This document shows, in pieces, positions 41,124-62,969 of a DNA stretch of 64,000 nucleotides. Origin of the DNA: Roridomyces roridus (Eukaryota; Basidiomycota; Agaricomycetes; Agaricales; Mycenaceae); contig JARKIF010000068.1 in the NCBI GenBank assembly GCA_029378245.1, forward strand, positions 62,001-126,000. Reading direction: 5' to 3'. Made by a program: the position numbers and the translations under genes. Each line of letters starts with the position of its first letter. The stretch's first letter is position 1. The notes below the pieces were generated by a model that searched no databases, was not told the DNA's origin, and saw nothing but the letters and a program-made list of their open reading frames with translations.

Positions 41124-42152
41124 TAGTGATCCGCACGGGGGCGGGGACCCGCCACGGGTCGCGGGTCGCGGGGACAGGTCACGGCGGGGACGGGGACGGG
41201 TCGACGAAGTGAATATGCCACGACCCGCGGGTCCCCGTCAGCCATGGTAGGGAGGGTGTCAGCTGCAAGTTTGTGCACTGATGGTGTGTGTTTCGGACAC
41301 TGAGGTGAGTGGAGTGCATTGAAAAGGATGGAATTCATCTGTTCGAGTCAATAGACCTCAATAGACCCTCTGCACCTGCTGAATACAGCGAAGGGACATG
41401 GGTATCCCACCTCCCCGTGGCTAGCCGACAGGTTTTCCACACACCCGTCTCCGCCGCCACAGGGACGGGTCAACCACGGCGATGGGGGAGGGTGGCTCTC
41501 GCGACCCGCATGGGTACCCCGTTGTTAGGTGTCGGATCCGAGGGAAGAATGTAGCAGGGATAAAATCGCCCGGAGGAGATTTGGACCGAGTTCTGGTTCG
41601 ATGTCGAAAGAACCGGAGGAAAGGAAAGTTGGACCGGAGTTCCGGGGCGATTGTCGGAGGAACGGTGACACCACTAAGGTCGAGGGTGACGGTCTGCCCA
41701 GCAATGCGAGACAAGGACCGAACGGGAGTTCCGGGGTGAGGAATCCGATCGGAGAGAGGAGAGAGGAGGGACTCAGAAAGACCAAGGTGGAATGCACCAA
41801 GAACGTCGATAATCAAACTGAAGTACCGAGTACAAAAGGAAAGTCTTATATACTAAGTGTGAGAGATATTTGTCAAGACACTAAAATAGACTTGAGAACG
41901 GACATAACCGGCCAAGTGGATATAAGGTGATTAAGTCCACACGGAGTGATCAAGTGGATGTGGATCCAGAACATGTCGGATGAATATCCTGTCAAAGTTC
42001 CCTTTTTCATGTGAAAAACCAAAATACCCAGTGTAGTCCGAGAAGCAGGACTCGGCCTGACAGATGGGATGGATCCGGAATCCGGTCAAAGGAACCGGAG
42101 TCCGGAGTTTGGATGAAGTTGGAACGGGACGTAACACCCGTGCGGATCACTA
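41124..42152. mobile_element. GC-rich hAT-type MITE, split by a solo LTR
   Basis: The ends TAGTGATCCGCACGGGG and CCCCGTGCGGATCACTA (the latter read across the LTR insertion) are perfect inverted repeats. The 8-bp flanks CACAGGGC (41116-41123) and CAAAGGGC (42153-42160) differ by one base. Subterminal GGGACGGG / CGACCCGC motifs are repeated. Without the inserted LTR and its duplication the element is about 410 bp. No coding frame. Confidence 0.82.
41523..42136 (-). mobile_element. Solo LTR (family 1, copy C) with 5-bp target duplication CCCGT
   Basis: It runs from TGTTAGGTGTCGG to GGACGTAACA, the reverse complement of the copy at 22452-23098 with modest divergence. CCCGT flanks both sides (41518-41522 and 42137-42141). 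It sits 16 bases inside the right end of a hAT-type MITE and so is younger than that MITE. Confidence 0.9.
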
Positions 42153-44753: not shown

Positions 44754-46320
44754 TGATACGCAGCGTCACGCGTACTAGTGTATAGTAGATAGCTCGAGTA
44801 GGTAATGTCCTAGAAGTAGACCGCGAAGCGATACAACTCCACAACACACTAACCACACAACACACACAACACACACACAATTCCTTGACTAGCACGCTGA
44901 CACCTAACGGTTGAGTTCGGGGTCGTCTGAAGTATACAGATAAGACTGATACTCCGCGGTTTGGTTCTCGGAAGCTTGTAGGTTGACTCTCGAGGTTTCA
45001 CACCAAGTTCAATGTCTTTGAACTAAGAGGAATCTCTTGACTGGTTTGTAGACTGCTCACAACGAACACGAGGTTACGATGTTAAAAGGTTTTATATTTT
45101 ATTGACCGAAACACACAATATCCAAACACCAATACAACTTCGATACAACACGAAGAGGAACTATAGCACAGAGGGCAACCCACTACCCCTTAAGTATGTT
45201 ACTATAGCTGACCCAAGTTGAACCAGAGCTCGGGTGCCTTTGATATTGCGTCTACGCTAAGAGAAATGATACAACAAATCTCCGCGGAAGTCACAAGACT
45301 GCACTATAACCACAGATCAAGCTTCGACCCAATGTCTAGGCAAGAAGGCGTACAATGCAATGCTGCAAGGGCGGGATCTACAGGCCTTATATACTACTCC
45401 CTACTGGTCTGATGATATAACTACTATTACGCGCCTGCCATCCCTATTTCCGTACTTTCCCTATAACCTTAGGTGCCCTGTCACCTATATTACATCCCCT
45501 CGAACCGCTTCGCGTGGTCCTGTTGCTTATGTTGCTGCTTGGCCCGTCTGATCGGTGGTCATGCCGCCTTGGCATTCGAGCCGATTGGCCTGGTAATTTG
45601 ATTCCGTCGTTTCATTACACTCTCTTGCTGAGCCAGCTCCCATTATGACTACAGCCCTCGACCCAGGTCCATAAATAACCTCGGTCCGCCATCTTCGTCA
45701 TCCAGAGCTTACTCCTGGCATATTCTGTCAGACGCGATCATCGCTCTGATCGTCTGCCGCGACTCCGCCGCTTTTCATGATCATGATCGTACTCGGATCA
45801 GTTCTCGATCATACTAGTGTGCCTGCGCGAGTTCGACTCGCCCACTTGTCATCTCTTTTCTGGGTGTCTCTGCAATACCGGAACGAATGCTAGTATTTCC
45901 TCCAACTCGTCTACGCGAGCCACTCTGTTTGTATACATATATATAGACTTATACCGGTCCGCGAGGTACTCCGTGAACCTTGTCATGATAGTACTGCGCG
46001 TCCGCGCAACCTTCGTCTTTGCTCTATAGCTAGTCTAGCTCATTTCTGAATACACCTGGGCTTGGTATATCTCCTTGGGTATGGTATCTCCACAAGTAGT
46101 AGTCCCCGCGAACCGCCTATTGGAGTCACTACAACCGACCACTTGAACAAATAGCCAAGCGTAGTGTACTGACGACTTGTACTTGTCTCATTAATACACG
46201 AATAGCGACACGGAGCTCGGTCCTATCCCTTATTGTATATCACCTGACAGAGGCATTGGTGTGCGCACCAAAACAGCTAATTAGCCAGATTTCACGCGTG
46301 CGAAATACGCAGTCGTATCA
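44754..46320 (-). repeat. 3' LTR of the 18.2-kb Gypsy element
   Basis: Begins TGATACGC, ends CGTATCA as written on the plus strand. Small plus frames inside it occur identically in the other LTR and are not genes. An AATAAAATATAAAA stretch reads on the minus strand at about 45,090-45,103 and could serve as poly(A) signal in this copy. Confidence 0.95.
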
Positions 46321-46330
46321 TCTCCCCTTC
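46321..46330 (-). other. Polypurine tract
   Basis: On the minus strand GAAGGGGAGA lies directly before the 3' LTR, the position and base content required to prime plus-strand DNA synthesis. It supports the minus orientation of the element. Confidence 0.75.
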
Positions 46331-47040
46331 ACTAAATCTCGACCGTCCCCGGTCGTGAACATGCGCGATCATAATTCGTCGATTTAGAGGTTCGAGGACT
46401 GATAGCCCCCTCGAACGTCTGTTTCAATTGTTTTATTTTGAGCCCAAATTGTCTTCGTTCATTCACCGATAGCTCCCGTGCTCCACGAGGTAGCTTCCGC
46501 GGATCTTTGATCCACCCTTAATTGAAAAGGCTGTGCTGGATTTTCCGCTAATTTTTATTTCACCGGAGTCTCACGCGCCCCTCTCGCGATTTTCGCTCCA
46601 ACTATTGAAGACACGCGTCTTCTTCGTTATTCTATTCGTTCCGTGCTTGTATCGTGCTGGTAGACCACCCACGAACCAGCGAGACCATAGTCCTCGAGGT
46701 TCGTGCTATCTATACTTGTTTTTCCCAGCCATTCAATTTTAGCGCCGTACCGGCTGCCCGGTTGTCTTGGCTTCTTTTCAACTCAGGGTCCTGGTCTCGA
46801 GTCATTTCTATTGCAAGTCTATTCCTGATCTTTTCCCAGGAATCTCCTTCCATGAGCCCCTTTTTAAGAGTCGACTCATCAAGACTTTCGCCCTTCTCGT
46901 TTTCTTTTCCTCTACTCTGCTTGTCGTCCTCCCGCATTCGCCTGGCGGGCTCTTCTGGTTACTCGTCTTTGACTCGTATCTCCACCACGCCTCCTCTCAT
47001 TCTCGACTACGTGGCGGTCCCACCAAGTCCGTACCGACTT
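46331..47040 (+). other. Upstream region of cargo gene A
   Basis: Sequence between the polypurine tract and the first cargo ATG. It should contain the promoter of gene A. Short frames here (46533-46742, 46654 onward) have no domain character. Confidence 0.4.
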
Positions 47041-49863
47041 ATGGCTCCGAAGCCTCGACCTCTCGACTCTGCCTCGGCCAAGGCTCGCTTCCTCTCGGAC
47101 CCGTGGAAACCCATCGGCGACGGTGGTGACCGTGCTTTCGTCTTCTTCACCGATCGTTTCGACACCACTCGTCCGCTGGAACCGGTTACTTTGTCTGTTC
47201 TCGTCCGCGAGACCCAACACTATTTTCAGTTCTTGGTACGTCTCGTTCTTTTCTCTTTTTGAAACGGCTAACTCCTTCTTAGAAACGCTATCGCGATCAC
47301 ACGCAAGGGGAAGTCATCCCCGAGATCGAGGCATTCTTTGCCCAGTGCTTTGACGTGCTTACCCGTCTCAACGACGTCTCCGGTCTTGGCAACAAGAACC
47401 TGAAAGGCACGGCTGCCTATCGACCCATGATTCCTTCCGATGATCCTTCTCGCGTGCGTCTTAATACGCTTCGTCTCCTCGCTTGTTTTATTGACGCCTT
47501 TTACAGCCCGTCCTTCCTCCTTCGTTCGACATTCCGGCACCTCCGGCACCACCTGCGCCTCCTGCACCTCCTGTGCCGTTGTCGCTGGACGATCGCTTCG
47601 CTATGGCCATGGACGATGACGACGATGAGGGCTCCGATGTCGCTCCCGTCCCTCCGCCATCGAAGTCTGCCGCCAAGGCCCTCGCTCCCACGATGGCGAA
47701 ATCTTCCGCCAAGGCCCTCACTCCTACGCCAGCGAAGTCTTCTGCCAAGGCTCCCGCTCCGCGGCTCGCGACCCCTAACTTGTATTTTAACGAGGACGAC
47801 CGCGTACGTCCATCCTCTCCGCTTTCTTTGCGCTGCTTTTGAATTCTTTTCAGATGCCCGAGGACCAACTGGAGCCTTCGCCTCCGCCCTTCGGCTATTC
47901 GTCCACAAAGTCCAAAAACAAGGCCGTTCCTTCCATCAACCTCTTTACCCACCCCAAGTCGGCAGCCGCCCCGTTCTTCCAAGCTCCGTCCAAGAAGAAG
48001 GGCAACAAGAACTCCAAGGCCAAGAGTCGTCGTCGTTCGAACGACGTTACGCCTGGTCCTTCTTTGGGTGGAGTCGAGTCTGAGGAGGTCCCTTCCGAGG
48101 TGCGTCCCTCGATCTTCTCATCTCTTCCTTTTATGCTAACTGTTTTTAGGACGAGGCCTTGATCATCAAAGGTCTTCCGCCCAAAACTCGTGTCGAGTCG
48201 CCGGCACCCTCCAACCGTCGTTCGATGCGCCCGTCGACCGTGGCTGCTCGTCCCCCCGAGTCACCACCTCCCGACCTTCCGCCTGTCGAGGTTCCGAAAA
48301 CCTCGCGCAAACGCAAACAGAAGAACGAACCGTCCGAGGCCCCTGACCAGAAACATCCGTTTCTGCATCCTTACGCTGCCAACCCCGACGGTGGCTACAA
48401 AAGCTACATCCTTGACGACCCCAAGCCCGAGGTCCCGACCAACCCTCCGGACGGTCTTCAAACCCACGAGTGGTACGCCAACTCGATGCATTCGAAAACT
48501 TCGGGCCCCAGTATGTTCTTTTTCTTCTTGTTTTTCTTCCTGACGTTCTGACGTTTGAAACTTAGAGCGTTCAATGCCCGGCGTTATTCCTCGCGTCATC
48601 CTGCACGACTTCATCGTCAAAGCCACGCCCATCCCCGAGACCATGGACGTCGTCGATTATTTCAGCAATCCTCAGTATTCAATCGACCAGGATTCGATTC
48701 CTGCCCCCGCCCCATCGTTGTTCAAAGACACGGATTCGCCCGACGATCCGACCCTCGATCCGGATCTGATCATCGCCTCGCGCATCCCGGGCAAGAACTA
48801 CTTCAAAGTGAGTCGTCGTTTCTCTGTCTTTCTCTTCTGGTGCGGCCCTAGCTCAACCTGTTTTGTGCTAGGCGCCTGCTCCGTGCTCGAACTGCGCCAA
48901 GCGCAACCACGTCTGTGGGTCTTTGGGACCGAAACACGCGTGCCTTGGCTGTGGCGTCGGCCACGGGACTTGCTCGAACTCTATTGACGAATACGAACAG
49001 AGCGCGATGTTCGAGTCCCTTCGGCCTGCCATCGAGATGTCCAATTTAGTGCGTCTTTCCTCTTTCCGCACTTCCTTTTATTCCTAACTTCCTTTCGTAG
49101 GCTTGATCCACCGCTTGGAAGGTTTGGCTTTCGCACGCCACAACCTCGAGTCGTCGCTCGCCGTCTTCCTCAACCAGCGCTCCTTCTATCGGATGCAGTT
49201 GCAGGAGTTGGCGTTGTACATCTTCTCGCTCCGCAAGTCCCTTCCCGAGGCCGAGCTCTTCAAGAAGTTCCAGAACGGTCGTGACGACCTCGACGTACTC
49301 CTCTCACTCTTCTGTTTCCACAACATCGACATGGATTCGGCGACTGCTTTCGTGGAGGACCTCGAGGAACGTCACCAGTTCGCTTTTGCACACATGGAGC
49401 CTACCCGCGTACGTCGTAACGTTCCGTTATTCTTTCTTCCCTGATTCTATGCGTTGTAGTTGATCGCTTTGCCTCTCGTCCCTGCCCAAGCGTCGACCAG
49501 CGGACTATTGCGCCTCAACTCTGCGCCCGATTTCTCGCGCCCGGCACCCGTGGAGACGGCTCCTCCAATGGCCCCTGTGGCTTCGACTTCGGCGCATCCA
49601 TCTCACCCTCCAACGCCGATCTCGCGCTTTAGTACTCTGGGTGGTGGTACGTCTAACTTTCTTTCTTATTCTTTTCCGTGTTTGGCTGATATTCGAGTCT
49701 AGCTTTGGACGAGTCTCGTCTGACTTCTCCGTCGACGCCTGCCATCGCGACCCTCAACGCCCCCGATACGCCGATGACGGATCACGCGCCGGAGGACGAG
49801 CTGATGGGCTCGCCCAACTCCTCGCCCGCTCCTCATCTCACGGCTGCTGAACCGACGGATTAG
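47041..49863 (+). CDS. Cargo gene A: Cys-rich zinc-cluster-like protein, ten exons
   Basis: The gene starts at MAPKPRPLDSASAKARF. In-frame GT-AG joins follow at FQFL/KRYRDH (47235/47283), PSR/PVLP, DDR/MPED, PSE/DEAL, SGP/(K)RSMPG, YFK/APAPC, PTR/LIAL and GG/ALDES, and it stops at 49861-49863. The product, about 790 residues, is largely disordered and Pro/Ala/Ser/Lys rich, with a basic stretch RKRKQKNE. Its one ordered-looking motif is CSNCAKRNHVCGS, then ACLGCGVGHGTCS, which could bind zinc. It is followed by a helical segment (SLAVFLNQRSFYRMQLQELA). The join between exons 7 and 8 (near 49,050-49,100) is off by one base under plain GT-AG splicing. I do not recognise a named family. The plan (disordered, basic, one Cys cluster) suggests DNA or RNA binding in the nucleus, which is inference. 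Confidence 0.72.
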
Positions 49864-50759
49864 GTGGACTGTGCTGGATGGGTTTGGGAATGCGGGCATC
49901 TTGTTGCGAGCCGATACGGCCAATCGCTTTTTTGTGTATTTGTTTTTCACCCCGCGGACTACAACCGACGTCACATACGTCGTCTCTATCTACTTAGAGT
50001 AGCAGTAGTAGAGTGCTCTCCCTTTGTACATCTAGTAGTCGGCCCAATCGTGGCCTCAAATATCATTGCTTTTGACTCCCGCCTTTATAGTGTGACGAAC
50101 GAACTTCCACTCTTTAAGATAATACAAATATCTTTGTCTTTTCTTTCAAGTAAGCGTTGTCTACTGTATTGCGCATTGAGTCTTCTCTAGTCCTAGTATG
50201 TTTGTAGTCTGACACTCTTGTCATGCGACCTTGTATCATAGCTTTGACCACTTCTCGGACTGCTTCTAGGACCGCTTCCCGGATCACAACTTCTTGATCC
50301 CTCATCATCCTCGAACCCCACACGGGTTCTTATTGACCATTCCTTATTTATGACCCGACTAATCCTTGGCCAACTCTTATCTGCTCACCCGCGCACGTTT
50401 CCTCGAACTCTGCTTCTAACTATAGTTCTGCCGATCGGTGCCCGCATGTAACATATTTGCAAATTGCTTTGTCTAACGCCATAGTGATTTGTCGGTGGTC
50501 TATTTGCAAGTCTGAAACTTTATCTTTGAAAAGCTTGGCGCCATCTTGGCTCTCTCCCCCTCACAAAAATAACACGACCGTCCTCGGGCGTGCCCCGCGA
50601 ACTTGTCATATTATTCCTGTCATGAACGGATACCAACATTTCAACGTTACAGACTCATCCTTTTTCGACCGTTACCCGCACTTCACCAATTTCACCACCG
50701 TGCAATATATAAACGGCACTCAATTGGTCCTAGGCAACCCATTCCGCTCTCTACTTCTC
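49864..50759 (+). other. Spacer between cargo genes A and B
   Basis: About 0.9 kb without a convincing gene. An open frame preceding the chosen start of gene B (from an ATG at 50622) could extend that protein by 46 residues. Confidence 0.4.
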
Positions 50760-52206
50760 ATGGCACCTGAGCCTCTTTCTCCCGACTCTGCCGCCATGAA
50801 GGCCGGCGCCCAACTCGTTGAAGCCGTTGCCGCCTATCGTTCCATCGATAAAACGATGACCGTTCTTATCCCTACCCGCAAGACCTTACTTGCTCAGGCA
50901 GTGAATCTCGGAGTGCGTCTGCTATATTTTCTATTGCTCGACGCCTTTGCTAACTCATTCCCAGGGTCACCTCTACGCGTTCAAAGAAGCCCTTCACTTG
51001 GTCGAGATGACTCCTGCCAAGGAAGCGCTCTTCCACGTCCGCGATGATGCCCTCGAAGCCAAGAAGGAGTGCGGTTTCGAGCCTCCTGCTGCTGCCATGA
51101 AGGAATGCGCCCTCGCCCTCCAATATTATCAAGCCCAGCGCAAGGATGCTCAAATTTGCAAGAAGGACGCCGACGATCGCAAAACCAAGCGTGCTGCCAC
51201 TACTGGTCGGAAACCTCCCAAGAAAAAGGTCCGTCGCAATCTCCTGCCTGTCCATTTTTCCTTCTCATATTCGCCTTCAATTTCCCAGGTCAATTCTGCA
51301 CCTACTGTCGAGGATGGAGAGGATGACGAGGATGGTGTGTCCATTATCCCAGCTCCCGCTGTCGACGCTAACTCGGTGCGTCTCTTCCTTTAGTCGTTCT
51401 TATCCTCTCTCACGAATTCGCCCATTTCCTCAAGATGGACGTCGATGACGATGGTGCTGCTGGTGCTCCCTCCAAGCTCGCGGGCCTCCACTTCCACAAA
51501 GGCGCCGTCGCCTGGGTCCCCACCATCGTTGACTCTGGTTCCAACGTTTCTGTTCTCGTGAAGGTGCGTCCCCTTCACTATAGATAACGTCCTACGATCT
51601 GACTTGGCCAATTTTCTAGTCCAAGAACACCTCCGAGGGAAAACGTCCTGAGACGGTACGTCTTCCTTACGAACATATTCGCTTTCTGAACCGCGACTCT
51701 CCTGCGTACCTCAAGGTCGTTCAGTACACCAAGCCCGAGCCGTCTCTCAAGGACTTTCCACCCCGCAAGCGCCAGCGTACCAGCTCTATCTATGCAAACA
51801 TCTCTGATGACGAGGCTGCTATTGGTGTGTCCTTATATTCTCTTCCTGCAGCGTTAAAACTCACGGCGTCTTCTGTCCCTCAGACGCCTTCGTTGATCCG
51901 CCTGCCAACGTCGCGGACAAGGCTCGTGCCTTTATCGCTGAGAACCCTCCCCCGGCGTCCTCCGACCGCTCTCCCCTCGAGATCAAGAAAGATCTTGAGT
52001 ATAGCGCTATCCGTCTCGACGTTCATCTTCGTCGTATCGACCGACTCCAGGCCGACCTGAAAGTCGCCGAGGACCGTCAGTGGCACGAGCTTCAGTTCGA
52101 GCGCCTTGCCAAGGGTGAAATTGAGCCACCCCCTTCTGTATGTTCTGACATTTTCTTTTGTCCGATCACACGCCGACACTCCTTCTAGTCGCCCGAAGGA
52201 TGTTAA
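50760..52206 (+). CDS. Cargo gene B: unknown protein, seven exons
   Basis: The chosen start MAPEPLSPDSAAMKAG resembles the first residues of cargo gene A (MAPKPRPLDSASAKAR). In-frame GT-AG joins are NLG/GHLYAFK, KKK/VNSAP, ANS/MDVDDD, LVK/SKNTS, AAI/DAFVDP and PPS/SPEGC, with TAA at 52204-52206. The protein has an Ala-rich helical N-terminal half, a basic run (GRKPPKKK), an acidic run (EDGEDDEDG), then HFHKGAVAWVPTIVDSGSNVSVLVK, which may be a small beta domain, written here over several residues. A charged helix (YSAIRLDVHLRRIDRLQADL) lies near the end. No known catalytic motif is seen. Confidence 0.65.
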
Positions 52207-52421
52207 ATCCCACTTTCGTTACTGCCAACAATCCCCACTCCTTAGAATGTTCTTCCTTTACGCTCAACCGTATCTAGTCTTCGTAAAATAGAAGTAGCAG
52301 ACCAATTCAACATTTTGACTGCTCTTTCTGCCTGAATTTGTCGTTCCGCGGAAGTTTCAAAATCGCCACATGGACTTATCGCGTGGACCAATAAAAGCCC
52401 GACGTCCGTCCATGCTTTCTC

Positions 52422-53083
52422 ATGAGCAGACTCACCCGCGAGCAACTGCTCGCCGCAGTTATCCTCACCAAGGTGCTGGTAAGTGCGCTTTGCGGACCTG
52501 TCTTCTCACGGTTGAATTCCCGCCTATCATAGCCATCACCCGGCGACTGCTGTCAACGATGCTCCGCCGCCAACAAAACTTGCTCGTTCCTCTCCTGGGG
52601 TCGTGCGTGCGTGGCTTGCGAAGGCCATTATTACGCCGACTGCAAGTACAAAAGCTTGGACGAGTGGGACAGCTTTCGTCACTCTCCTCACTTCCAACTT
52701 CCGGGTGCGCTATTTGTTTTCCGTACTCCCGGATGGCACTCAAAGTTTTTCTAGAACCTGCGCTCCTTGATTCCGTGCCACCCGCCTTCCTTTTCCCCCA
52801 CGTTCCCGAGGTCTTTACGATCCTCCATACTCAATACTATCTCTGGCCGTTGTATATGCTGGATCTCAACCTCCGCGAACTGAGCCTCGACCTTCTGATC
52901 GACTGGACTGTCGCTGTCTACGGTGCCGGACCTCCGCCCCAAGCGTTCCTGGACTTGGCGCTGTGTCGTCTGACGGAATTATGCTATCCCGAGACGGTCC
53001 ATGACACCATGCAGATTATCCAGGCTCGGATTTTACTCAGCCGAGCCGCGACCCAAAATAGTAGCCTTCATGTAATGGAGTAG
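52422..53083 (+). CDS. Cargo gene C: small Cys-rich protein, three exons
   Basis: Exon 1 gives MSRLTREQLLAAVILTKVL before a GTAAGT donor. Exon 2 gives PSPGDCCQRCSAANKTC, then FLSWGRACVACEGHYYADC, then KSLDEWDSFRHSPHFQLP. Exon 3 continues VFLEPALLDSVPPAF to a TAG at 53081-53083. The eight cysteines within 33 residues form a CxxC...C...CxxC...C pattern that would fit a binuclear or treble-type zinc site, but spacing differs from classical Zn2Cys6 domains. The C-terminal ~100 residues are helical and Leu-rich (YLWPLYMLDLNLRELSLDLL). The same FxSWGRACxxC core occurs in cargo gene D, so C and D are diverged duplicates. Confidence 0.7.
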
Positions 53084-53246
53084 ACGTAATTGCCCTTTCT
53101 AAAAACATGCGGCCGCTGCTATCTTGGTCCTCGAAAATTTTCAGTTTCCGATCGTTGTATCACCCTCGATCCCTTCCGCGAGGTCTCTATTTGCTATAAA
53201 AGACCCCCTCGAACTGACCGATTTCTCTGTCTACTTTCCCAGCGAC

Positions 53247-53905
53247 ATGCCTCGTCGCAACCTTCGCGAAGTTCAGACCATCCAAATGCTGGAGGACCTC
53301 CGGGTATGTTCCCATCTTAGCCCTGATCCCAACACTTCGTCTAAACTGCCTTTCCTTAGCCTCCCGGAGGAACCATGTGCGGTCCTTGCCAAGAGTTGTG
53401 CCTGCCTTGTATCTTCGTGTCCTGGGGGCGTGCTTGTCGTCGGTGCACCTATCGCTTCTGCCCTTGCGAGTTTACGGAGATGAACGAGTTCCTGTCGTTC
53501 CGCCGGAGCCCAATTTGCGACGAGCAGGGTGCGTCTTCTTTCGCCTCCCTCAGTGCTTTTACTTATTCGCCACTTTCTTTAGCGGTTCCTTTTCATCGCA
53601 AGCCCGTGCCGTACTCGCAGCTCCTTCCCTTCGTGCCTCGCGCGTTCGAGATCCTCCGCGAGTCCTATCACAACCGTACTCGTCGTGAGATCAAGTCCAC
53701 CTTCGAGCGCATGTCGATCTCTGCGATCCTCACTTGGCTTATGCAACACGAAAACGACCCTTACTTCCACCCGGACGTCGAGCACCTCGCCCTCAAGGTT
53801 CTTATTGAGCGCGGCCACCCTGACAGCCTCAACGCCCTCTTTGCTATTCGCCAGTCCGGTACCTTGACTTTCACCGCGACTGCGCGCCCTGTTCGTACGC
53901 CTTAG
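53247..53905 (+). CDS. Cargo gene D: small Cys-rich protein, paralogue of C, three exons
   Basis: Exon 1 encodes MPRRNLREVQTIQMLEDLR. Exon 2 encodes PPGGTMCGPCQELCLPC, then IFVSWGRACRRCTYRFCPC. Exon 3 runs from AVPFHRKPVPYSQLLPFVP to a TAG at 53903-53905. The motif CGPC...C..C...FVSWGRACRRC...C aligns with that of gene C, and the following helical domain (FEILRESYHNRTRREIKSTF) has matching length. The stop lies only 25 bases from the stop of the retroelement integrase, which reads toward it on the other strand. A nuclear, nucleic-acid-binding role is plausible from the basic N-terminus and Cys cluster but unproven. Confidence 0.7.
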
Positions 53906-53930
53906 AGTACGCTTTTTATAGCTTCGCCGT

Positions 53931-55709
53931 TCATGTCCGTAGTTTGTCTACCAATTTCGATAAACGTTTGGACTTGCGCATCCTGTCTGCTGCATCATCG
54001 TTCGAATCTTCCGCGGAGGAGTCCTCGGACTGCTCTTCGCCTTCAGTCTCTGGCTCTTCAAAGTCTTCTGAAGTTACCCGCAGGTGAACATCCTTGAATT
54101 GAATGTCCTTTCCTTGGTACACCTTAGATTTCTTCGTTTTCGGCTCCACAGATTCCTCGTCGTTTGCTAGCTTCTCCAGAGTTTCCTTCGAGATGTCGAT
54201 GACCCTATGGATGTTTTCTGGTAACGGAATAGATTGTCGTGCAAAATAAGGGATAACCCTAAACGCTCCAATTTTGTCTTGGAACATTGCACCGTTCATT
54301 TCCGCGACCAAGTACGCTCCTCCTTTGGTTCGTCGAACCACTATCATAGGTCCTAGGTATCGGTTCTCCATTTTTGAATTCAAACTCTTTTCTACACTGG
54401 TATGTCTAACCAGCACCAACTCTCCTGGTTGGAAATCGTACTGTTGGATGGTGTTCTCGAAGTACCTCTCGTACTTCCGTAACGCCATCCTTTTCTCGTG
54501 GGTGACTCGCGACCTCATGGCTTCTACATGCTGATGATGCTTGGCCAAGGCCTGTGCCCTGAACCCCACTAATTCAGAGTTGGTCAAAACTCTGCCAGGC
54601 AGTTCTACCAGCCAGGTCGCTTCTTCCAAATCCAAAGGTAGGATTGGATGCGCTCCGGTGACTAGGAAGAAGGGAGAACACCCCTTGCCTTTCCTAATGG
54701 TAATCCTGTCTGCCCACAACACCTGATGGAAGAAGTAGAACCACTTCCCCGGGTTTCCACCCGTAGCTTTGGTTAGCGACTGTCGAAGCGGGAAGTGCCC
54801 CTGCTCGATTTTGCCGTTACCTTGCGAGTTGTAAGGCGATATATTGATCCCAATAATGCCATATTTCTTTTCCAACCACGCTAAAGCCTTTCTGAACGCG
54901 CCCGCATTATCTGTTACGATCACCCGCGGACAGCCCCATCCGCAGATAATATCCTCCAGAATGAACATCCCAAGCGTCTCAGCATTCTCGTTCTTAATTG
55001 GTCGTGCTTCCAACCAACTCGATAGTGAATCGCGGGCGTCTACAACCATTGAATATCCATTCGAAGTTGCTCCCATTTTCATCACGTCAATGTGAACTTG
55101 CTGAAACAGACTCGGCGTGTGCGTGATGACAGGCGGGATTTTCAAGAGTGTCGTTTGCCGTACTTGACAGCTATGGCACGTTTTAATATACCAACTGACA
55201 TCCCTATCCAACTCCGGCCACCAGAATCGTAGGCTGATCAATTCTTTGGTTGCCCAAAATCCTCGATGTCCTAGACTATCGTGTGCTGCACGCATCATGT
55301 ACATCCTGTGCTCTTTATCTACCACCAATTGGTGTGCTGTACCGATTCCTTTTCGATACATCCTCCCCTCTTTCAAAAAGAAATGTGAGGCCCACCGAAC
55401 GAAGTGTCTGTAATCTTTCTTCTGAACACTCTTCGGCCTTTTCAGTGGATTCTCCAGCCAAGTCCTTAAACCGGCCAGTCTGTTATCCTGCATCTTAGCC
55501 AAGTTAGAGCGCCGACTCTCGTCATACGGCTCCCGCTTGTCCGGATCCCATTTCAACTCCAAGTCTGGAATTAGCGGTTCCGCGGCCTGCACAAACTGTG
55601 GTACAGGTTCCCCTTCTTTCTCATACGCTCTTTTCACAGAAGTCCTGACTTGCTCCTCCAAAGACCTGGCCCAAGCCCAGTCAGTCTCGAAGTCCGCGGG
55701 GCTCCCCGC
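53931..55709 (-). CDS. Retrotransposon integrase
   Basis: The frame is open from directly after the TGA at 55712-55710 and in phase with the upstream RT frame. It holds the HHCC zinc finger (HDSLGHRGF, then CHSCQVRQ) and the catalytic D,D-35-E residues in QVHIDVMKM, VIVTDNAGAF and NGKIEQGH. A basic C-terminal region follows (LVLVRHTSVEKSLNSKMENRY as two blocks). The tail is acidic and ends KRLSKLVDKLRT; no chromodomain is evident. It inserts the cDNA into the genome. As no ATG is needed if the stop is read through, the protein is probably made as part of the pol polyprotein. Confidence 0.92.
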   Translation of the reverse strand, partial: AGSPADFETDWAWARSLEEQVRTSVKRAYEKEGEPVPQFVQAAEPLIPDLELKWDPDKREPYDESRRSNLAKMQDNRLAGLRTWLENPLKRPKSVQKKDYRHFVRWASHFFLKEGRMYRKGIGTAHQLVVDKEHRMYMMRAAHDSLGHRGFWATKELISLRFWWPELDRDVSWYIKTCHSCQVRQTTLLKIPPVITHTPSLFQQVHIDVMKMGATSNGYSMVVDARDSLSSWLEARPIKNENAETLGMFILEDIICGWGCPRVIVTDNAGAFRKALAWLEKKYGIIGINISPYNSQGNGKIEQGHFPLRQSLTKATGGNPGKWFYFFHQVLWADRITIRKGKGCSPFFLVTGAHPILPLDLEEATWLVELPGRVLTNSELVGFRAQALAKHHQHVEAMRSRVTHEKRMALRKYERYFENTIQQYDFQPGELVLVRHTSVEKSLNSKMENRYLGPMIVVRRTKGGAYLVAEMNGAMFQDKIGAFRVIPYFARQSIPLPENIHRVIDISKETLEKLANDEESVEPKTKKSKVYQGKDIQFKDVHLRVTSEDFEEPETEGEEQSEDSSAEDSNDDAADRMRKSKRLSKLVDKLRT

Positions 55710-58022
55710 TCACTCAGTCGTCTGTAAATAGCCGCCCCTTGTATCTATCTTGTCTTTAAATTCCTCGAATTCCAGCGGTTGCGGCCCATTTGGATCAATC
55801 TCCTCATGGTCCTCAGGTGGATCATTGTCATCGAAACCATCCTCTGGATTCTTAAAGACTTCATCCCCGGGATGCGGATCCCTTCTTGACAGACCATCCG
55901 GCGCGAAAGTCGCACCAGGCACGTGTTTTAACTTGAAATGGAACATGAGAATCTTCTCGATCCACCGGTTAATAGTCGCATTTGGCCCCATTCCAGGATT
56001 CTTCAACATTCCACGGATGTACAAGGCATCCGTCTCAACCACCAGCCGTCTACATCCCAACAACCAGTACGACATTGCATCCAGAGCCCTCATGAGCCCG
56101 AACAATTCGCGCTTTGGTTGCGAGTAATTGGCTTCTCTTTCTGTTAGTGTGATTGACGCGAACCTCGCGTACCACCTCTTGGTCGGGTCCTCGGGGTCTA
56201 CCTGGTAGATAATTAACCCCACAGCCCTCCAAGACGTGTCCACTTGTAATACTATGTCCGAATCCAGCTCATAATCCAGAGGCTTGAGTGCCTTACAATC
56301 TTTGAGCGCTTCTCGAACATCTGCTTGTGCCTTATCGTGGGCTTCACCCCATTCAAAATGTATTTCCTTCTTCGTTAGGTCATTTATTGGACCTAGGATT
56401 TTCGCAAAGTCTTTTATGTAGGACCGGAGGACGCCAACTGTTCCGAGGTATGACTTGACTTGTGTAAAGTTCGCCAATTTTCCCCATTTCATGATGACAC
56501 CAATCCGTTTAGGATCCGCGATCCTGCCTTCATAAGTACACATATGACCAACAACTTCAAATGTGCCTTTGCAAAGTACTGCTTTCTTTCCTGAAAACGT
56601 TCCTCCAGCATAGATCATTCTAGCAACAACCCTGTTCAAATTTTGAAAGTGTTCCCACACAAATCGTCTGATGCCTTTGTTTTCGGCTATGCGCTCATAG
56701 TCTCCGTCCTTAGTCTCGTATCGAGTCTTAGGTCCGCGCATAGGTACATCATCAATGTAGGGGATGGTGACATGAGGTACTTCATCTCTGAGAATATAGG
56801 TAACATCATCATGGAAAATGGGAACCGAATTGGTCCAGCCCATGGGTAGCTTCACTAATCTCATGGCTCCAAAGGGAGTCTGAAACGTTGTATAGTCCCT
56901 CGAACCTTCTGCGAGGTCTCGATTGTCATATCCTACGAACATATCCAATGCTCCTCCGCAAGCGCGTCCTGCAAATTGCTCTGCGATGGCCTCTGTACCT
57001 GGTGTGACTCCAGAATGCTGGATGGTAACTTCGTTCAACCTCTCCAAGGAGTGCACAATCCGTAGTGACTTGCCATCTTTCTTGATTACCGCAAAGATCG
57101 GAGTGCGATACGAAGAGTTCGAAGGCTCGTATACACCTGCATCAATCTTCGCCTTGATGTTCTTGCAAAATTCTTCATAATGACCAGGCGGAATCGGAAT
57201 CTGCGAACACACCCACGGGGTATGTTCTGCAACCGGAATTTCCACGGGAGGAAAGAACTCGTGCTTCAATCTCCCTCTCTCATTTTCTTCCCAGGCGAAG
57301 CTCTTCTCATGTTGCATCATAAAATGGTGCATCAACTTGCGCTCCTCGGGTTCTAAGAGTCCATCATCATGTATTGCGTCAACCATATCACGGCGCTCCT
57401 CAGTATACCTTCCCACTGCCTCGAATTCAGGTGGATTCGGGTTTAGAGTTGGCATGTCCTGCAAGGGGTCACCCGTGATCTGCCTCTCGATCCGATATTT
57501 CTCGGGCAAGGTGGCCAGTATCGGCATGACCTTGTCTGCGACTTTCTTGTACTTCTTTCCGAGGAAGTTAGCTACCTCCTCTGTGCAATCCCTCAATATC
57601 TCGGGTATGGTAGGTACTTTCTTGCGAAACATCTTTCTAATTGACTTTGGCGCTGATCGCTCAGTTTCCCCGCGTAGTTGCATCAGCGTCATCTTTCGGG
57701 TATTCTTCCCGCATCTGATCCGACGCTTCTCACGGTTGCGTTTCTGGGCTACGCCAGTCTCGCCCACTTCTTTGAAAGTAAACACCTCCATCCCTTCCTC
57801 AGTCTTACTAAGACCTAGATACTGATTCAACAGCTCAGCTGCCGCTTCGTCATCGTCCACTACCTGTCTCGAGGCACATAGATATGCTTGTGTGATATCC
57901 TCCTCAGTAGCAACTTTGTCCTTGGGTTTTGCATACCCCGTACATATCAGTTGTCCACGCTCATCGTAATCCCAAGAAGTCATGAGTTCTCCCCCATCCT
58001 CGAGTTCCTCGAACAAACTTAA
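55710..58022 (-). CDS. Reverse transcriptase and RNase H
   Basis: The frame is entered by -1 slippage at 58028-58022; it has no ATG near its start. The N-terminal ~230 residues are a basic linker. The RT domain follows (FAWEENERGRL, RTPIFAVIKKDG, LPMGWTNSVPIFHDDV) with the catalytic IPYIDD near residue 420. The RNase H part shows VLQVDTSW, YSQPKRELFGLM and VETDA, and ends near FAPDGLSRR. It ends at a TGA (55712-55710) that is in frame with integrase. It copies the element's RNA in the cytoplasmic particle. Confidence 0.93.
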   Translation of the reverse strand, partial: LSLFEELEDGGELMTSWDYDERGQLICTGYAKPKDKVATEEDITQAYLCASRQVVDDDEAAAELLNQYLGLSKTEEGMEVFTFKEVGETGVAQKRNREKRRIRCGKNTRKMTLMQLRGETERSAPKSIRKMFRKKVPTIPEILRDCTEEVANFLGKKYKKVADKVMPILATLPEKYRIERQITGDPLQDMPTLNPNPPEFEAVGRYTEERRDMVDAIHDDGLLEPEERKLMHHFMMQHEKSFAWEENERGRLKHEFFPPVEIPVAEHTPWVCSQIPIPPGHYEEFCKNIKAKIDAGVYEPSNSSYRTPIFAVIKKDGKSLRIVHSLERLNEVTIQHSGVTPGTEAIAEQFAGRACGGALDMFVGYDNRDLAEGSRDYTTFQTPFGAMRLVKLPMGWTNSVPIFHDDVTYILRDEVPHVTIPYIDDVPMRGPKTRYETKDGDYERIAENKGIRRFVWEHFQNLNRVVARMIYAGGTFSGKKAVLCKGTFEVVGHMCTYEGRIADPKRIGVIMKWGKLANFTQVKSYLGTVGVLRSYIKDFAKILGPINDLTKKEIHFEWGEAHDKAQADVREALKDCKALKPLDYELDSDIVLQVDTSWRAVGLIIYQVDPEDPTKRWYARFASITLTEREANYSQPKRELFGLMRALDAMSYWLLGCRRLVVETDALYIRGMLKNPGMGPNATINRWIEKILMFHFKLKHVPGATFAPDGLSRRDPHPGDEVFKNPEDGFDDNDPPEDHEEIDPNGPQPLEFEEFKDKIDTRGGYLQTTE

Positions 58023-58975
58023 AAATTTCTTTTAGGCGACTCGCTGTCGGCTGATAATACCGGGTGCTCTTTCTCTGCTTTCCCAACTACGCGCTGTTTG
58101 CCACGTTCGCTGGTAGGAATGGTCATTGTACGTTGTGTCACAGGATCCGTCATGGTTATTGTCTGAGTTCCATCCGGTTTGTTTTGAATCACAGCACTGG
58201 TAACGATTTCGAAAGGTCTACCCAGGAGCGCTTTGTAGGGCGCTGTCCTGAGCACATGGATCTGTAGGAATACAGTGATACCTGGGAACGTGAAAGCTAC
58301 ATTTCGTGCTAGCCCCATCGTTCTCTCAACCTTGCCCGTGGATCCCTGCATCAACACGGTCGCGGAAGTATCCCATGCGAGCCCAAAATGAATGGCCTCT
58401 GCCTCGGTTATCGAACATATCTGCGAACCACCATCTAGTAGTGTTTCGACAGTTCCAATGCCATTAATCAACGGATACAGACTTCGCAATGCTGCGGAAG
58501 ACGTGCCAACGTAGATATCCTTTCCTGATTTACCCGAGCCTAAGCTATCGTGATACTGTACAAAAGCATCCTCAATTACGATGGACCCTTCTGGTACAGC
58601 CCCACTTGCTTCCGTGGTTACGAATACATACTGATCGAATGGTAAATCGTCAATGTGCACCGCCCCTTCCGGAACCTGATCTCCTGACTCAGCCTGGACC
58701 TCCGCGGACGGCTCCTCGGACTGGGTCTTGGACCCTGTCTCGCTCTGAGCTTCCTCGGTGTCCAACTCGCTTTCCACCACCACCTCTCCCGTTTCCTTGT
58801 CTACCACTCTTACTACAAAGTTGGACGACTCAGAGCCTTGGAGGGCTTGGAAGATAGGTCGCCGACGTTTGGCCGTGACCTTGTTCATTTCCTTCTGCAG
58901 AGGGTTGCTGGCTGCCATAGATGCCGGATCGTCACTGGAATTTCCATATCTAAGATCCTTTTCTTCAATGCTTTG
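58019..58975 (-). CDS. Retroviral-type aspartic protease region
   Basis: The frame opens at about 58,980 and its first Met is at 58918. The active-site block VETLLDGGSQICSIT carries DGG where DTG or DSG is usual; the flanking hydrophobic strands (FLQIHVLRTAPYKALLGRPF) fit a retropepsin. An acidic leader precedes it. It should cut Gag and Pol. The frame is -1 relative to the preceding pol linker, with no canonical slippery site seen at that junction, and ends AAT-TTT-TAA within a slippery heptamer leading into RT. Confidence 0.8.
   Translation of the reverse strand, partial: QSIEEKDLRYGNSSDDPASMAASNPLQKEMNKVTAKRRRPIFQALQGSESSNFVVRVVDKETGEVVVESELDTEEAQSETGSKTQSEEPSAEVQAESGDQVPEGAVHIDDLPFDQYVFVTTEASGAVPEGSIVIEDAFVQYHDSLGSGKSGKDIYVGTSSAALRSLYPLINGIGTVETLLDGGSQICSITEAEAIHFGLAWDTSATVLMQGSTGKVERTMGLARNVAFTFPGITVFLQIHVLRTAPYKALLGRPFEIVTSAVIQNKPDGTQTITMTDPVTQRTMTIPTSERGKQRVVGKAEKEHPVLSADSESPKRNF
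58022..58028 (-). other. -1 ribosomal frameshift heptamer AAATTTT (protease to RT)
   Basis: The zero frame reads A-AAT-TTT-TAA, so the canonical X-XXY-YYZ heptamer lies directly before the protease stop. The -1 frame continues into RT. No other route into the RT frame, which has a TAA at 58034-58032 and no ATG nearby, is visible. Confidence 0.7.
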
Positions 58976-59376
58976 ACCGCTGCTCCATCATCCACTTCCG
59001 AGGTTACCTTGTACGCTCGCTCCGTGTCATTGGAGGTCGTCTTTGGTAGCTCAGTCTTCTGGGGATTCGGTTTTCGCGGAAGGGCTGGCTCTCTCTTAGC
59101 ATCCACTACCGGTGGTACATCCCGATAGGGCAACTCTTCTGCTCGAGTACTGGTGGGCGGAGGATCGTCTTCATCCTCTACCTCTTCAATCGTGGGCTTC
59201 GGATCTCTCTTCCGAGGAGGCACCACAACTGCATCCATCACTATCTTTTTAGGTTTTTCTATTTTCTCAGTCTTCTTCTTGGCCGGCGTCTTTTTCGGTT
59301 TCTGGGCGTCCTCGGGAACGTCGCGTCTACCCGGAGGGCCACGCGGCAGATCCTTCCTCGGACTTACCGAAAACCC
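58885..59376 (-). CDS. Pol linker region between gag and protease
   Basis: This frame is -1 relative to gag and is entered at the GGGTTTT heptamer. It is rich in Lys, Pro and Glu (KKTPAKKKTEKIEKPKK, EEVEDEDDPPP) and then reads AYKVTSEVDDGAAVKALKKR and ILDMEIPVTIR, a segment common just upstream of the protease in basidiomycete Gypsy elements. It stops at 58885. Confidence 0.75.
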   Translation of the reverse strand, partial: GFSVSPRKDLPRGPPGRRDVPEDAQKPKKTPAKKKTEKIEKPKKIVMDAVVVPPRKRDPKPTIEEVEDEDDPPPTSTRAEELPYRDVPPVVDAKREPALPRKPNPQKTELPKTTSNDTERAYKVTSEVDDGAAVKALKKRILDMEIPVTIRHLWQPATLCRRK

Positions 59377-60887: not shown

Positions 60888-61383
60888 GGTTGTTTGTCTG
60901 TTTACTGGATTAAACGGAGTTTGAGTTTGAAGCTGCGGGTTCGAATTCGCGACAAGCTCGATTGCACTGTTTGAAAGACTTCTCGTTCTTTGAGCGACTT
61001 TCTTTTGTTGGTCCGCGGCGTTGGCTGATACTCGTTCTTGGACTCGGGTTGAAGCTGCTGCTCTTCCTCTGACCACGGGTGTAGCGTTTCGCTGCGAAGG
61101 GGTTCCTCTAGCTGAGCCTGCGGCTGCTGCTTGAGAGTTTTTGGTAGTCCTAGTGATCTTGTTCTGGGACTGGGTTGCAGATGCCTCGGGTACAAGGTTT
61201 TTCTGCGCGGCGGACTGTTTCTGAGAGGGTACTCCGAAAGACAGTTTGCCTAAGGTATGCTCGAAATGATTTGCTTTGTTAAACCGGCTTCGGTTTTCTT
61301 CTTGGATCTAAACAAGTAGACTTGTTGGAATCTCAAGATTCGACTTTGTTAAGCTTCGTTGATGCGAAATATCAAAATTGACC

Positions 61384-61400
61384 CCTCGCGGTGGGCTCCA
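61384..61400 (-). other. Primer-binding site
   Basis: On the minus strand TGGAGCCCACCGCGAGG starts two bases inside the 5' LTR. It is complementary to a tRNA 3' end ...GGTGGGC-T-CCA, with U as discriminator base; tRNA-Cys would fit that base, but the primer is not proven. Confidence 0.65.
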
Positions 61401-61402
61401 GA

Positions 61403-62969
61403 TGATACGCAGCGTCACGCGTACTAGTGTATAGTAGATAGCTCGAGTAGGTAATGTCCTAGAAGTAGACCGCGAAGCGATACAACTCCACAACACACTA
61501 ACCACACAACACACACAACACACACACAATTCCTTGACTAGCACGCTGACACCTAACGGTTGAGTTCGGGGTCGTCTGAAGTATACAGATAAGACTGATA
61601 CTCCGCGGTTTGGTTCTCGGAAGCTTGTAGGTTGACTCTCGAGGTTTCACACCAAGTTCAATGTCTTTGAACTAAGAGGAATCTCTTGACTGGTTTGTAG
61701 ACTGCTCACAACGAACACGAGGTTACGATGTTAAAAGGTTTTATATTTTATTGACCGAAACACACAATATCCAAACACCAATACAACTTCGATACAACAC
61801 GAAGAGGAACTATAGCACAGAGGGCAACCCACTACCCCTTAAGTATGTTACTATAGCTGACCCAAGTTGAACCAGAGCTCGGGTGCCTTTGATATTGCGT
61901 CTACGCTAAGAGAAATGATACAACAAATCTCCGCGGAAGTCACAAGACTGCACTATAACCACAGATCAAGCTTCGACCCAATGTCTAGGCAAGAAGGCGT
62001 ACAATGCAATGCTGCAAGGGCGGGATCTACAGGCCTTATATACTACTCCCTACTGGTCTGATGATATAACTACTATTACGCGCCTGCCATCCCTATTTCC
62101 GTACTTTCCCTATAACCTTAGGTGCCCTGTCACCTATATTACATCCCCTCGAACCGCTTCGCGTGGTCCTGTTGCTTATGTTGCTGCTTGGCCCGTCTGA
62201 TCGGTGGTCATGCCGCCTTGGCATTCGAGCCGATTGGCCTGGTAATTTGATTCCGTCGTTTCATTACACTCTCTTGCTGAGCCAGCTCCCATTATGACTA
62301 CAGCCCTCGACCCAGGTCCATAAATAACCTCGGTCCGCCATCTTCGTCATCCAGAGCTTACTCCTGGCATATTCTGTCAGACGCGATCATCGCTCTGATC
62401 GTCTGCCGCGACTCCGCCGCTTTTCATGATCATGATCGTACTCGGATCAGTTCTCGATCATACTAGTGTGCCTGCGCGAGTTCGACTCGCCCACTTGTCA
62501 TCTCTTTTCTGGGTGTCTCTGCAATACCGGAACGAATGCTAGTATTTCCTCCAACTCGTCTACGCGAGCCACTCTGTTTGTATACATATATATAGACTTA
62601 TACCGGTCCGCGAGGTACTCCGTGAACCTTGTCATGATAGTACTGCGCGTCCGCGCAACCTTCGTCTTTGCTCTATAGCTAGTCTAGCTCATTTCTGAAT
62701 ACACCTGGGCTTGGTATATCTCCTTGGGTATGGTATCTCCACAAGTAGTAGTCCCCGCGAACCGCCTATTGGAGTCACTACAACCGACCACTTGAACAAA
62801 TAGCCAAGCGTAGTGTACTGACGACTTGTACTTGTCTCATTAATACACGAATAGCGACACGGAGCTCGGTCCTATCCCTTATTGTATATCACCTGACAGA
62901 GGCATTGGTGTGCGCACCAAAACAGCTAATTAGCCAGATTTCACGCGTGCGAAATACGCAGTCGTATCA
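61403..62969 (-). repeat. 5' LTR of the 18.2-kb Gypsy element
   Basis: Identical by eye to the 3' LTR. An AATAAAATATAAAA stretch reads on the minus strand at about 61,739-61,752 and may act as the TATA element of the retroelement promoter. Confidence 0.95.

What the first reader, a model, noticed from the sequence alone, without database searches (positions are those of the whole stretch)
46321..53905. A Gypsy retrotransposon carrying four intron-containing genes in antisense
Seen: between the integrase and the 3' LTR of an 18.2-kb element lie four plus-strand genes with about 19 introns, while gag-pol is on the minus strand. Known: sense introns would be spliced from the genomic RNA and lost on reverse transcription. 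Inference: antisense orientation hides the introns from the spliceosome, so genes with introns can travel by retrotransposition. Antisense frames in this slot are known from some plant Gypsy elements (for example Grande-like), but a block of four spliced genes is, to my knowledge, unusual. The products might regulate the element or its host.
Basis: partly seen in the sequence, partly recalled or inferred. Interest (0 to 1): 0.92.

Follow-up and report, generated by a model that had tools for sequence, protein, structure and literature searches.

The report
Retrotransposon with antisense spliced gene cassette
A mushroom's jumping gene carries, on its opposite strand, four genes with twenty predicted introns that were still in place in every other copy that could be tested, likely because the reversed strand hides them from splicing; the genes are predicted to encode DNA-binding regulators.

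Summary
An 18,216-bp Gypsy element of the agaric Roridomyces roridus (identical LTRs, 4-bp target duplication) has gag-pol on the minus strand and, between integrase and 3' LTR, four plus-strand genes with 20 predicted introns. It is not a nested insertion: 10 of 10 near-identical integrase copies scored carry the block or a deletion remnant. In 16 other copies or fragments 194 of 194 testable introns are retained; exons diverge less than introns, and dN/dS is below 0.3 in 64 of 66 comparisons of genes 1-3. Slots behind integrase in five diverged Gypsy elements (integrase 54-64% identical) also hold intron-rich antisense genes; two more distant ones (45%, 37%) do not. Genes 1, 3 and 4 share an exon for a six-cysteine module resembling a divergent Zn(II)2Cys6 cluster; it recurs in four of the five other slots. 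Splicing, expression and DNA binding are not shown. This copy has a stop in pol and a frame break in gene 1; 8 of 16 other copies have lost cassette parts. The kind is known (antisense ORFs in Grande, Retand, Boty; HTLV HBZ); the multi-gene, intron-rich form appears new.

The parts
44754..46320 (-). 3' LTR (element reads on the minus strand)
   Evidence: 100% identical to the other LTR; TG...CA ends and 4-bp TSD CCGT
46321..46332 (-). candidate polypurine tract next to the 3' LTR
   Evidence: purine-rich run on the minus strand read directly; not tested
47041..49863 (+). gene 1, 10 exons / 9 predicted introns; proline-rich, acidic and basic stretches, six-Cys module in exon 7, conserved C-terminal half; frame-broken in this copy by one base before intron 7
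   Evidence: NCBI model P0005 of the C90 copy
48872..49048 (+). six-cysteine (Zn2Cys6-like) exon of gene 1
50706..50712 (+). TATA-like box 54 nt before the gene 2 ATG
   Evidence: motif match only
50760..52206 (+). gene 2, 8 exons / 7 predicted introns, 349 aa, two basic clusters and an acidic stretch
   Evidence: NCBI model P0004 shares intron 1
52422..53083 (+). gene 3, 3 exons / 2 predicted introns, 185 aa, six-Cys module in exon 2 (52533-52704)
   Evidence: NCBI model P0003
53195..53201 (+). TATA-like box 52 nt before the gene 4 ATG
   Evidence: motif match only
53247..53905 (+). gene 4, 3 exons / 2 predicted introns, 182 aa, distant paralogue of gene 3 with the same exon pattern; six-Cys module in exon 2 (53360-53528)
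53931..55661 (-). integrase part of pol
   Evidence: Integrase_H2C2 E=3e-18
55710..58016 (-). reverse transcriptase and RNase H part of pol; separated from integrase by an in-frame stop in this copy
   Evidence: RT_RNaseH E=2e-12; five other copies open for 1,363-1,366 aa
59364..61076 (-). gag-like ORF with a CCHC motif
   Evidence: motif read by eye
61403..62969 (-). 5' LTR

Best explanation
A Gypsy retrotransposon carries on its antisense strand a cassette of four predicted multi-exon genes that is copied along with it, introns included, and the proteins likely act as nuclear DNA-binding regulators of the element. Shown: the cassette sits at the same place in the copies of the family, its predicted introns persist in all testable copies, its exons evolve as protein-coding sequence, and antisense intron-rich genes, most with a related six-cysteine exon, lie behind the integrase of other Gypsy families in this genome. 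Inferred: the genomic RNA reads through the cassette from the 5' LTR with every intron as its reverse complement, which the spliceosome does not recognise, so reverse transcription passes the introns on; separate plus-strand transcripts from internal promoters (TATA-like boxes before genes 2 and 4) are spliced and translated; [quoted passage not shown] Loss of cassette parts in many copies suggests that the proteins can be supplied in trans.
For: Same slot in copies: (10 of 10 near-identical integrase copies, window included, have the block or a remnant; 76 of 253 candidates were scored); 4-bp TSDs at different sites in 4 of 4 elements whose two ends were read. Introns: 194 of 194 retained, GT 194, AG 192. 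Coding constraint: exon vs intron divergence, e.g. g1 0.077 vs 0.163 against C90 (p=4e-7); dN/dS 0.08-0.32 for the g1 N-half, 0-0.16 for the g1 C-half, 0.04-0.18 for g2, 0.05-0.45 for g3; exon indels 2.2 per kb, 7 of 10 multiples of three, vs introns 50.5 per kb, 6 of 55 (13 of 16 copies). Lineage-wide: tblastn of g3 against the slot of an element with 64% integrase identity, E=2e-7, 4e-5, 8e-5 at three antisense places; gene finder on five slots; 12 six-Cys modules antisense, 0 sense, 0 in 50 shuffles per slot, 12 of 12 with an AG in phase 0 at 12 or 18 nt upstream; shared intron positions between families; 8 of 8 testable loci of two other cassette genes, four of them new, lie antisense behind an integrase. 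Zn2Cys6 likeness.
Against: No RNA or protein evidence. 8 of 16 other copies or fragments have lost parts of the cassette by deletions of 637-6,644 bp (C473, C135, C82, C224, C257, C464b, C455, C13), while C473 and C135 keep a full open pol frame, so the cassette is not needed in cis. For g4 dN/dS is not uniformly low (0-0.91 on 2-8 changes; 0.91 against C224 and C82). C90, C211 and C438 are partly degenerate. No module passes Pfam's cut-off for Zn_clus (4 of 12 match, best E 0.041), and one module matches another zinc family better (zf-C2HC5, E 0.0045); PDB hits to HAP1 are E 0.2-0.35; the structure model had pLDDT 57.7. g3 found nothing in the C35 slot, the C473:70184 slot has no six-Cys module, and window g2 shows no significant similarity to gene-2-like genes elsewhere. 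The gene finder gives up to 51 on the sense strand of slots and 43 on that of the window, so single models below about 50 are within its noise. No TATA-like box before g1 and before 14 of 18 models in other families.
Confidence: 0.66

Rival explanations
1. The cassette consists of host genes captured by this element and carried as passengers that do nothing for it.
For: Parts are deleted in many copies; a Zn2Cys6-like module could come from a host transcription factor gene, of which the genome has at least 53 Zn_clus matches.
Against: Antisense intron-rich genes, most with a related module, lie in the same slot of five other diverged elements, and 8 of 8 testable loci of two of their genes are antisense behind an integrase; purifying selection among the copies; every genome match to g1-g4 lay in a copy of this element family, though these searches also missed the diverged g3 relatives in C458, so distant host relatives are not excluded; public proteins gave only R. 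roridus itself (g4, g1 and a g1 region searched; g2 and g3 were not searched there).
Confidence: 0.15
2. The useful product is antisense RNA: the plus-strand transcripts pair with the genomic RNA and feed or block small-RNA silencing; the reading frames are incidental.
For: The whole cassette overlaps the expected genomic RNA in antisense; a dsRNA role is proposed for plant antisense ORFs (PMC7264820, passages read).
Against: Frames, splice sites and codon-level constraint are kept while introns drift; pure antisense RNA needs none of this. Both roles may coexist.
Confidence: 0.1
3. The block is a second mobile element or a gene cluster nested in this one Gypsy family.
For: 7.6 kb of genes foreign to Gypsy elements; close matches to g1-g4 are found only in this family.
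Against: No terminal inverted repeat at the block's ends (6 short pairs, none spanning both ends); no copy with a clean empty site among those compared; C13 is a deletion; related modules sit in the same slot of other families.
Confidence: 0.04

Closest known systems
Plant Gypsy elements with antisense ORFs between pol and 3' LTR (Grande gene23, RIRE2, Retand TRP28, PvRetro13)
   Same: Same slot, antisense orientation, present in all or most copies, long pol-3'LTR region (2.9-6.6 kb in Retand), nuclear or DNA-binding products proposed (PMC7264820 and PMC11963269, passages read)
   Different: Those papers describe ORFs; the word 'intron' does not occur in either main text. Here four genes with 20 predicted introns and no TRP28 match
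Boty / BcGypsy1 of Botrytis cinerea with antisense gene brtn
   Same: A fungal Gypsy-type element with an additional antisense gene (PMC8365987 and PMC4227169, passages read; the 2011 original seen only as a citation)
   Different: One additional gene named there; ascomycete; intron content of brtn not seen; no sequence comparison made
HTLV-1 HBZ and the APH proteins of other HTLVs
   Same: Antisense gene near the 3' LTR of an LTR retroelement, spliced, nuclear, represses sense transcription (PMC3185765, passages read)
   Different: One bZIP gene starting in the 3' LTR; here four genes, probably internal promoters, zinc-cluster-like; a works-like comparison only
Fungal Zn(II)2Cys6 transcription factors
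   Same: Cysteine spacing CX2CX6CX8CX2CX6-7C in the three window modules; profile similarity to host Zn_clus domains
   Different: Below Pfam's cut-off; fewer basic residues between Cys 2 and Cys 3 than usual (usual pattern recalled); carried by a retrotransposon

Membership tests
Ty3/Gypsy LTR retrotransposon | Two direct LTRs with TG...CA ends and target-site duplication | tested here: met
   4-bp TSDs also in C90, C455, C13
Ty3/Gypsy LTR retrotransposon | RT-RNase H upstream of integrase, gag before pol | tested here: met
   (RVT_1 scores below Pfam's cut-off; RNase H and integrase zinc domain above it)
Ty3/Gypsy LTR retrotransposon | Primer binding site matching a tRNA | not tested
   sequence next to the 5' LTR read only
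[quoted passage not shown]
Gypsy elements with antisense additional ORFs (Retand lineage) | Antisense TRP28 domain (PF04195) | tested here: not met
   no Pfam family for the first 563 aa of g1 and for g2, no TRP28 for g3 and g4 at E<=5
Zn(II)2Cys6 cluster | Six cysteines spaced CX2CX6CX5-12CX2CX6-8C (spacing recalled) | tested here: met
   three of three window modules; the L053 and L055 modules have X4 in the first loop
Zn(II)2Cys6 cluster | Pfam Zn_clus score above its cut-off | tested here: not met
   4 of 12 modules match, best E 0.041; one module matches zf-C2HC5 at E 0.0045
Zn(II)2Cys6 cluster | Profile similarity to true Zn_clus domains | tested here: inconclusive
   hhalign against 7 host sequences: probability 59.7, E 8.9e-5, score 23.6; best of 30 column shuffles 17.1; H2C2 and CCHC controls 0.5 and 0.2
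Zn(II)2Cys6 cluster | Zinc and DNA binding | not testable with these tools
   needs protein
HBZ-type antisense factor (works like) | Spliced antisense mRNA and repression of sense transcription | not testable with these tools
   needs RNA and reporter assays

The most novel reading that the evidence does not exclude
A clade of fungal Gypsy retrotransposons uses its antisense strand as an intron-safe compartment: a multi-gene cluster of host-style, spliced, zinc-cluster regulators has lived there since before the families split, duplicating and diverging by exon modules while being copied through RNA with its introns intact.
Probability: 0.55. Interest if true: 0.87.

Novelty: new variant of a known kind. 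Interest (0 to 1): 0.76.

Why it matters
Passage through RNA is expected to strip introns from anything a retroelement carries. Here a whole cluster of intron-rich genes passes through unchanged because, as inferred, it lies backwards. This would show how retroelements can gain and keep eukaryote-style multi-exon genes, give a fungal counterpart to the antisense regulators of retroviruses, and offer a testable source of new regulatory proteins in mushroom genomes that hold such elements.

Tried and rejected
Nested insertion: rejected. Chance or gene-prediction artefact: rejected by selection, intron retention and strand and shuffle controls. The gene finder was trained on the window's own genes, so its result on the window is circular; only the other slots count, and its noise reaches about 50. 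The six-Cys search pattern was written after the first modules had been seen. Gene 2 homology across families: sequence not significant (best hhalign 14% in an acidic stretch); intron phases look alike but this proves nothing, and g2 shares no intron position with the C473:70184 gene. Structure of the six-Cys module: AlphaFold pLDDT 57.7, so no fold search was made. Pfam on whole cassette proteins: nothing significant. Protein database: three searches, only R. roridus; 5-residue-word seeding limits sensitivity, and only 7,994 candidates were scored. Microhomology at deletions: the scripted count gave 0-2 bases because alignment ends blur the junction; longer shared stretches are visible in the flanks printed for C473 and C455 but were not tested. 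Whether C82/C224 and C257/C464b are separate insertions or two haplotypes of one locus stayed open. Rows dropped: the loci that hold only LTR (L003, L005-L009), L010 and the window's own loci; in the exon count the window's own break before intron 7, and in its 13-copy rows C90, C211 and C438; in the exon/intron test six of 16 copies (C473, C26, C438, C13, C90b, C456); one of eight host Zn_clus loci (L063, no match to the pattern), and two of the seven kept are identical.
Full report
What is there. The two LTRs (44754-46320, 61403-62969) are 1,567 bp and identical, end in TG...CA and are flanked by CCGT. The element is 18,216 bp, read on the minus strand: gag-like ORF, RT-RNase H, integrase. 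The host is Roridomyces roridus (Mycenaceae): three NCBI proteins of that species sit on contigs of 266,998, 162,842 and 1,287,402 bp, the lengths of contigs C455, C473 and C90 of the window's own genome.

Gene models. Four plus-strand genes were modelled by splice signals: g1 47041-49863, g2 50760-52206, g3 52422-53083, g4 53247-53905; 24 exons, 20 introns of 47-64 nt. NCBI's models of other copies share junctions with mine; P0003 and P0004 fit the deletion-fused copies in C455 (g3-g4) and C473 (g2-g4). My gene finder differs on the window: it fuses g3 and g4 and gives 22 introns. In the window copy g1 differs by one base before intron 7 from 12 of 12 other copies covering it, which breaks its frame, and pol has an in-frame stop absent from 5 of 5 copies examined. 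Intact copies exist: g1 is open in 8 of 10 other copies that cover it fully, g2 in 2 of 5, g3 in 3 of 4, g4 in 5 of 6; pol is open for 1,363-1,366 aa without a stop in 5 copies.

The block belongs to the family. DNA of g1 matched 17 places and DNA of g2-g4 19 places, grouped into the window plus 16 other copies or fragments; some pairs may be the two haplotypes of one locus. All 10 elements with 96% or more integrase identity (window included, 76 of 253 candidates scored) carry the block or a remnant. Of 11 full-length gag copies 10 do; the eleventh, on C24, shows neither block nor near-identical integrase and may be a fragment, as are two gag pieces on C460 and C168. Four elements whose two ends were read have perfect 4-bp duplications at different sites: CCGT (window), GCGT (C90), GCGC (C455), CCGG (C13); the one end of C211 that was read has yet another flank. 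C13 lacks 46893-53538 but keeps both ends of the block, so it is a deletion derivative. Other deletions: C473 51122-53785, C135 52009-52647, C82 and C224 50637 to about 52694-52726, C257 and C464b 51978-56237, C464a 52145-52339, C455 52824-53718. Identity varies along the block (g1 region 89%, g2-g4 region 97% between window and C90). Synonymous divergence itself is higher in the g1 N-half (0.24-0.30 against the C90-like copies) than in g2 (0.05-0.15), which fits recombination between subfamilies of different age.

Selection. Of 194 intron-copy cells with both flanks aligned, 194 keep the intron, 194 keep GT and 192 keep AG; the two exceptions are intron 7 of g1 in C82 and C224. Leaving out splice ends, g1 exons vs introns differ from the window by 0.077 vs 0.163 in C90, 0.072 vs 0.152 in C224, 0.039 vs 0.071 in C464a; exons are lower in all 10 of the 16 copies given to the test, for g1 with p<0.01 in 10 of 10 and for g2-g4 with p<0.05 in 9 of 10 (C68: 0.08). 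dN/dS (window or C455 against others, so not independent): g1 N-half 0.08-0.32, g1 C-half 0-0.16, g2 0.04-0.18, g3 0.05-0.45, i.e. below 0.3 in 64 of 66 comparisons; g4 0-0.91 in 13 comparisons with 2-8 changes each. Distinct indels: exons 10 (2.2 per kb; 7 multiples of three), introns 55 (50.5 per kb; 6 multiples), intergenic 23 (18.1 per kb; 1 multiple) in 13 of 16 copies; with the decayed C90, C211 and C438 included, exons 56 (12.4 per kb; 7 multiples), introns 72 (66.1 per kb; 7 multiples). Exons behave as protein-coding and introns drift, yet no intron has been lost. Since new copies arise by reverse transcription, the copied RNA was not spliced at these introns.

Other families. Integrase search lists further Gypsy elements at 64% identity and below. 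I read about 7-8 kb behind the integrase in seven. In five (C458 and C469, 64%; C2, 60%; C35, 58%; C473:70184, 54%) the gene finder found intron-rich genes on the antisense strand, total scores 214, 399, 169, 190 and 416, against 0, 18, 51, 18 and 36 on the sense strand and 0 in 12 dinucleotide shuffles each; in C290 (45%) and C1 (37%) antisense scores were 24 and 57, without a convincing multi-exon gene. Individual models below about 50 are within the finder's noise; each of the five slots has at least one model of 130 or more. tblastn with g3 hit the C458 slot at three places in the antisense direction (E 2e-7, 4e-5, 8e-5) and found nothing in the C35 slot; the other slots were not put to tblastn. 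C458 and C469 share only patches of DNA similarity, yet their gene-2-like genes (151 of 284 aligned residues identical) share three of five intron positions exactly and two within four columns in the same phase; their Cys genes share two of three; the C35 and C2 gene-2-like genes share two of five or six and one nearby. A C2 gene matched four places and a C458 Cys gene five; eight of the nine lie antisense behind an integrase or its fragment (four of the eight are slots I had already picked, four are new: C301, C2:1488277, C201 twice), the ninth (C257:3465) lies at a contig end. LTRs of these other elements were not mapped, so that the genes lie inside them is inferred from position and orientation.

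The six-cysteine exon. A pattern of six spaced cysteines, written after the first modules had been seen, occurs 12 times on the antisense strand (window 3, C458 3, C469 4, C35 1, C2 1; none in C473, C290, C1), 0 times on the sense strand and 0 times in 50 shuffles of each slot's antisense strand; 12 of 12 have an AG in phase 0 at 12 nt (10) or 18 nt (2) before the first Cys codon, and 8 of 12 a phase-1 donor-like site behind (the window g1 donor reads phase 0 because of the frame break). One C469 module runs into a stop soon after and was cut for the alignment. Five columns are invariant. So g1, g3 and g4 share one exon module, and g3 and g4 are distant paralogues. It resembles the fungal Zn(II)2Cys6 cluster: Zn_clus is the Pfam family matched by most members (4 of 12, best E 0.041), though one member matches zf-C2HC5 at 0.0045; the four best of five PDB hits are HAP1/CYP1 clusters (E 0.2-0.35); and hhalign against seven host Zn_clus sequences gives 59.7% with all six cysteines aligned, above 30 column shuffles and two other zinc motifs. 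This is suggestive, not proof.

Mechanism. Shown: co-inheritance, intron persistence, coding constraint, recurrence in other families. Inferred from established biology: the spliceosome does not use reverse-complemented introns. Inferred: internal promoters, splicing, nuclear DNA-binding proteins, regulation of the LTR or internal promoters. Two basic clusters in g2 fit a nuclear role; a simple scan found none in P0005 and no long hydrophobic run in P0005 or g2, which speaks against an envelope.

Literature. Antisense ORFs in this slot are known in plants (PMC7264820, passages; PMC11963269, abstract and passages) and in Botrytis Boty (PMC8365987, PMC4227169; passages). HTLV HBZ is a spliced antisense gene (PMC3185765, passages). 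Bdelloid additional ORFs (PMC5408684, passages) are another extra-gene case. The rows listed by searches (titles and starts of abstracts) named no paper on a multi-gene intron-bearing antisense block; the library lacks most subscription papers, and Zhao 2011, Gomez-Orte 2013 and Steinbauerova 2011 were not read.

Noticed in passing
window 47661-47760: 36-bp in-frame tandem repeat in g1 exon 3; copies with an open g1 differ there by 36, 45 or 54 bp, a length-variable coding repeat.
   Followed up: partly
window 46321-61400: The internal region is purine-poor on the plus strand; third codon positions of g1-g4 are A-poor and C-rich (A 4-12%, C 40-42%) while pol has A 24%, C 21%: two codon regimes in one element.
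   Followed up: no
element ends in window, C90, C455, C13: All four target duplications read S-C-G-N (CCGT, GCGT, GCGC, CCGG), which hints at a CG-centred insertion preference.
   Followed up: no
window 22518-23098 and 41523-42105: Inverted pair of repeats (595-column alignment, 91% identical) outside the element.
   Followed up: no
L023/L025 (C26:8331-9356): About 1 kb inserted in g1 of the C26 copy.
   Followed up: no
genome G000: Many Zn_clus hits come in contig pairs with equal scores, which suggests that both haplotypes are in the 91-Mb assembly.
   Followed up: no
L058 4423-5211: A gag-like frame on the antisense strand behind a distant integrase, probably a second element.
   Followed up: no
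C473 and C455 deletion junctions: Short shared sequences near the breakpoints, seen by eye, suggest template switching during reverse transcription or microhomology repair.
   Followed up: partly
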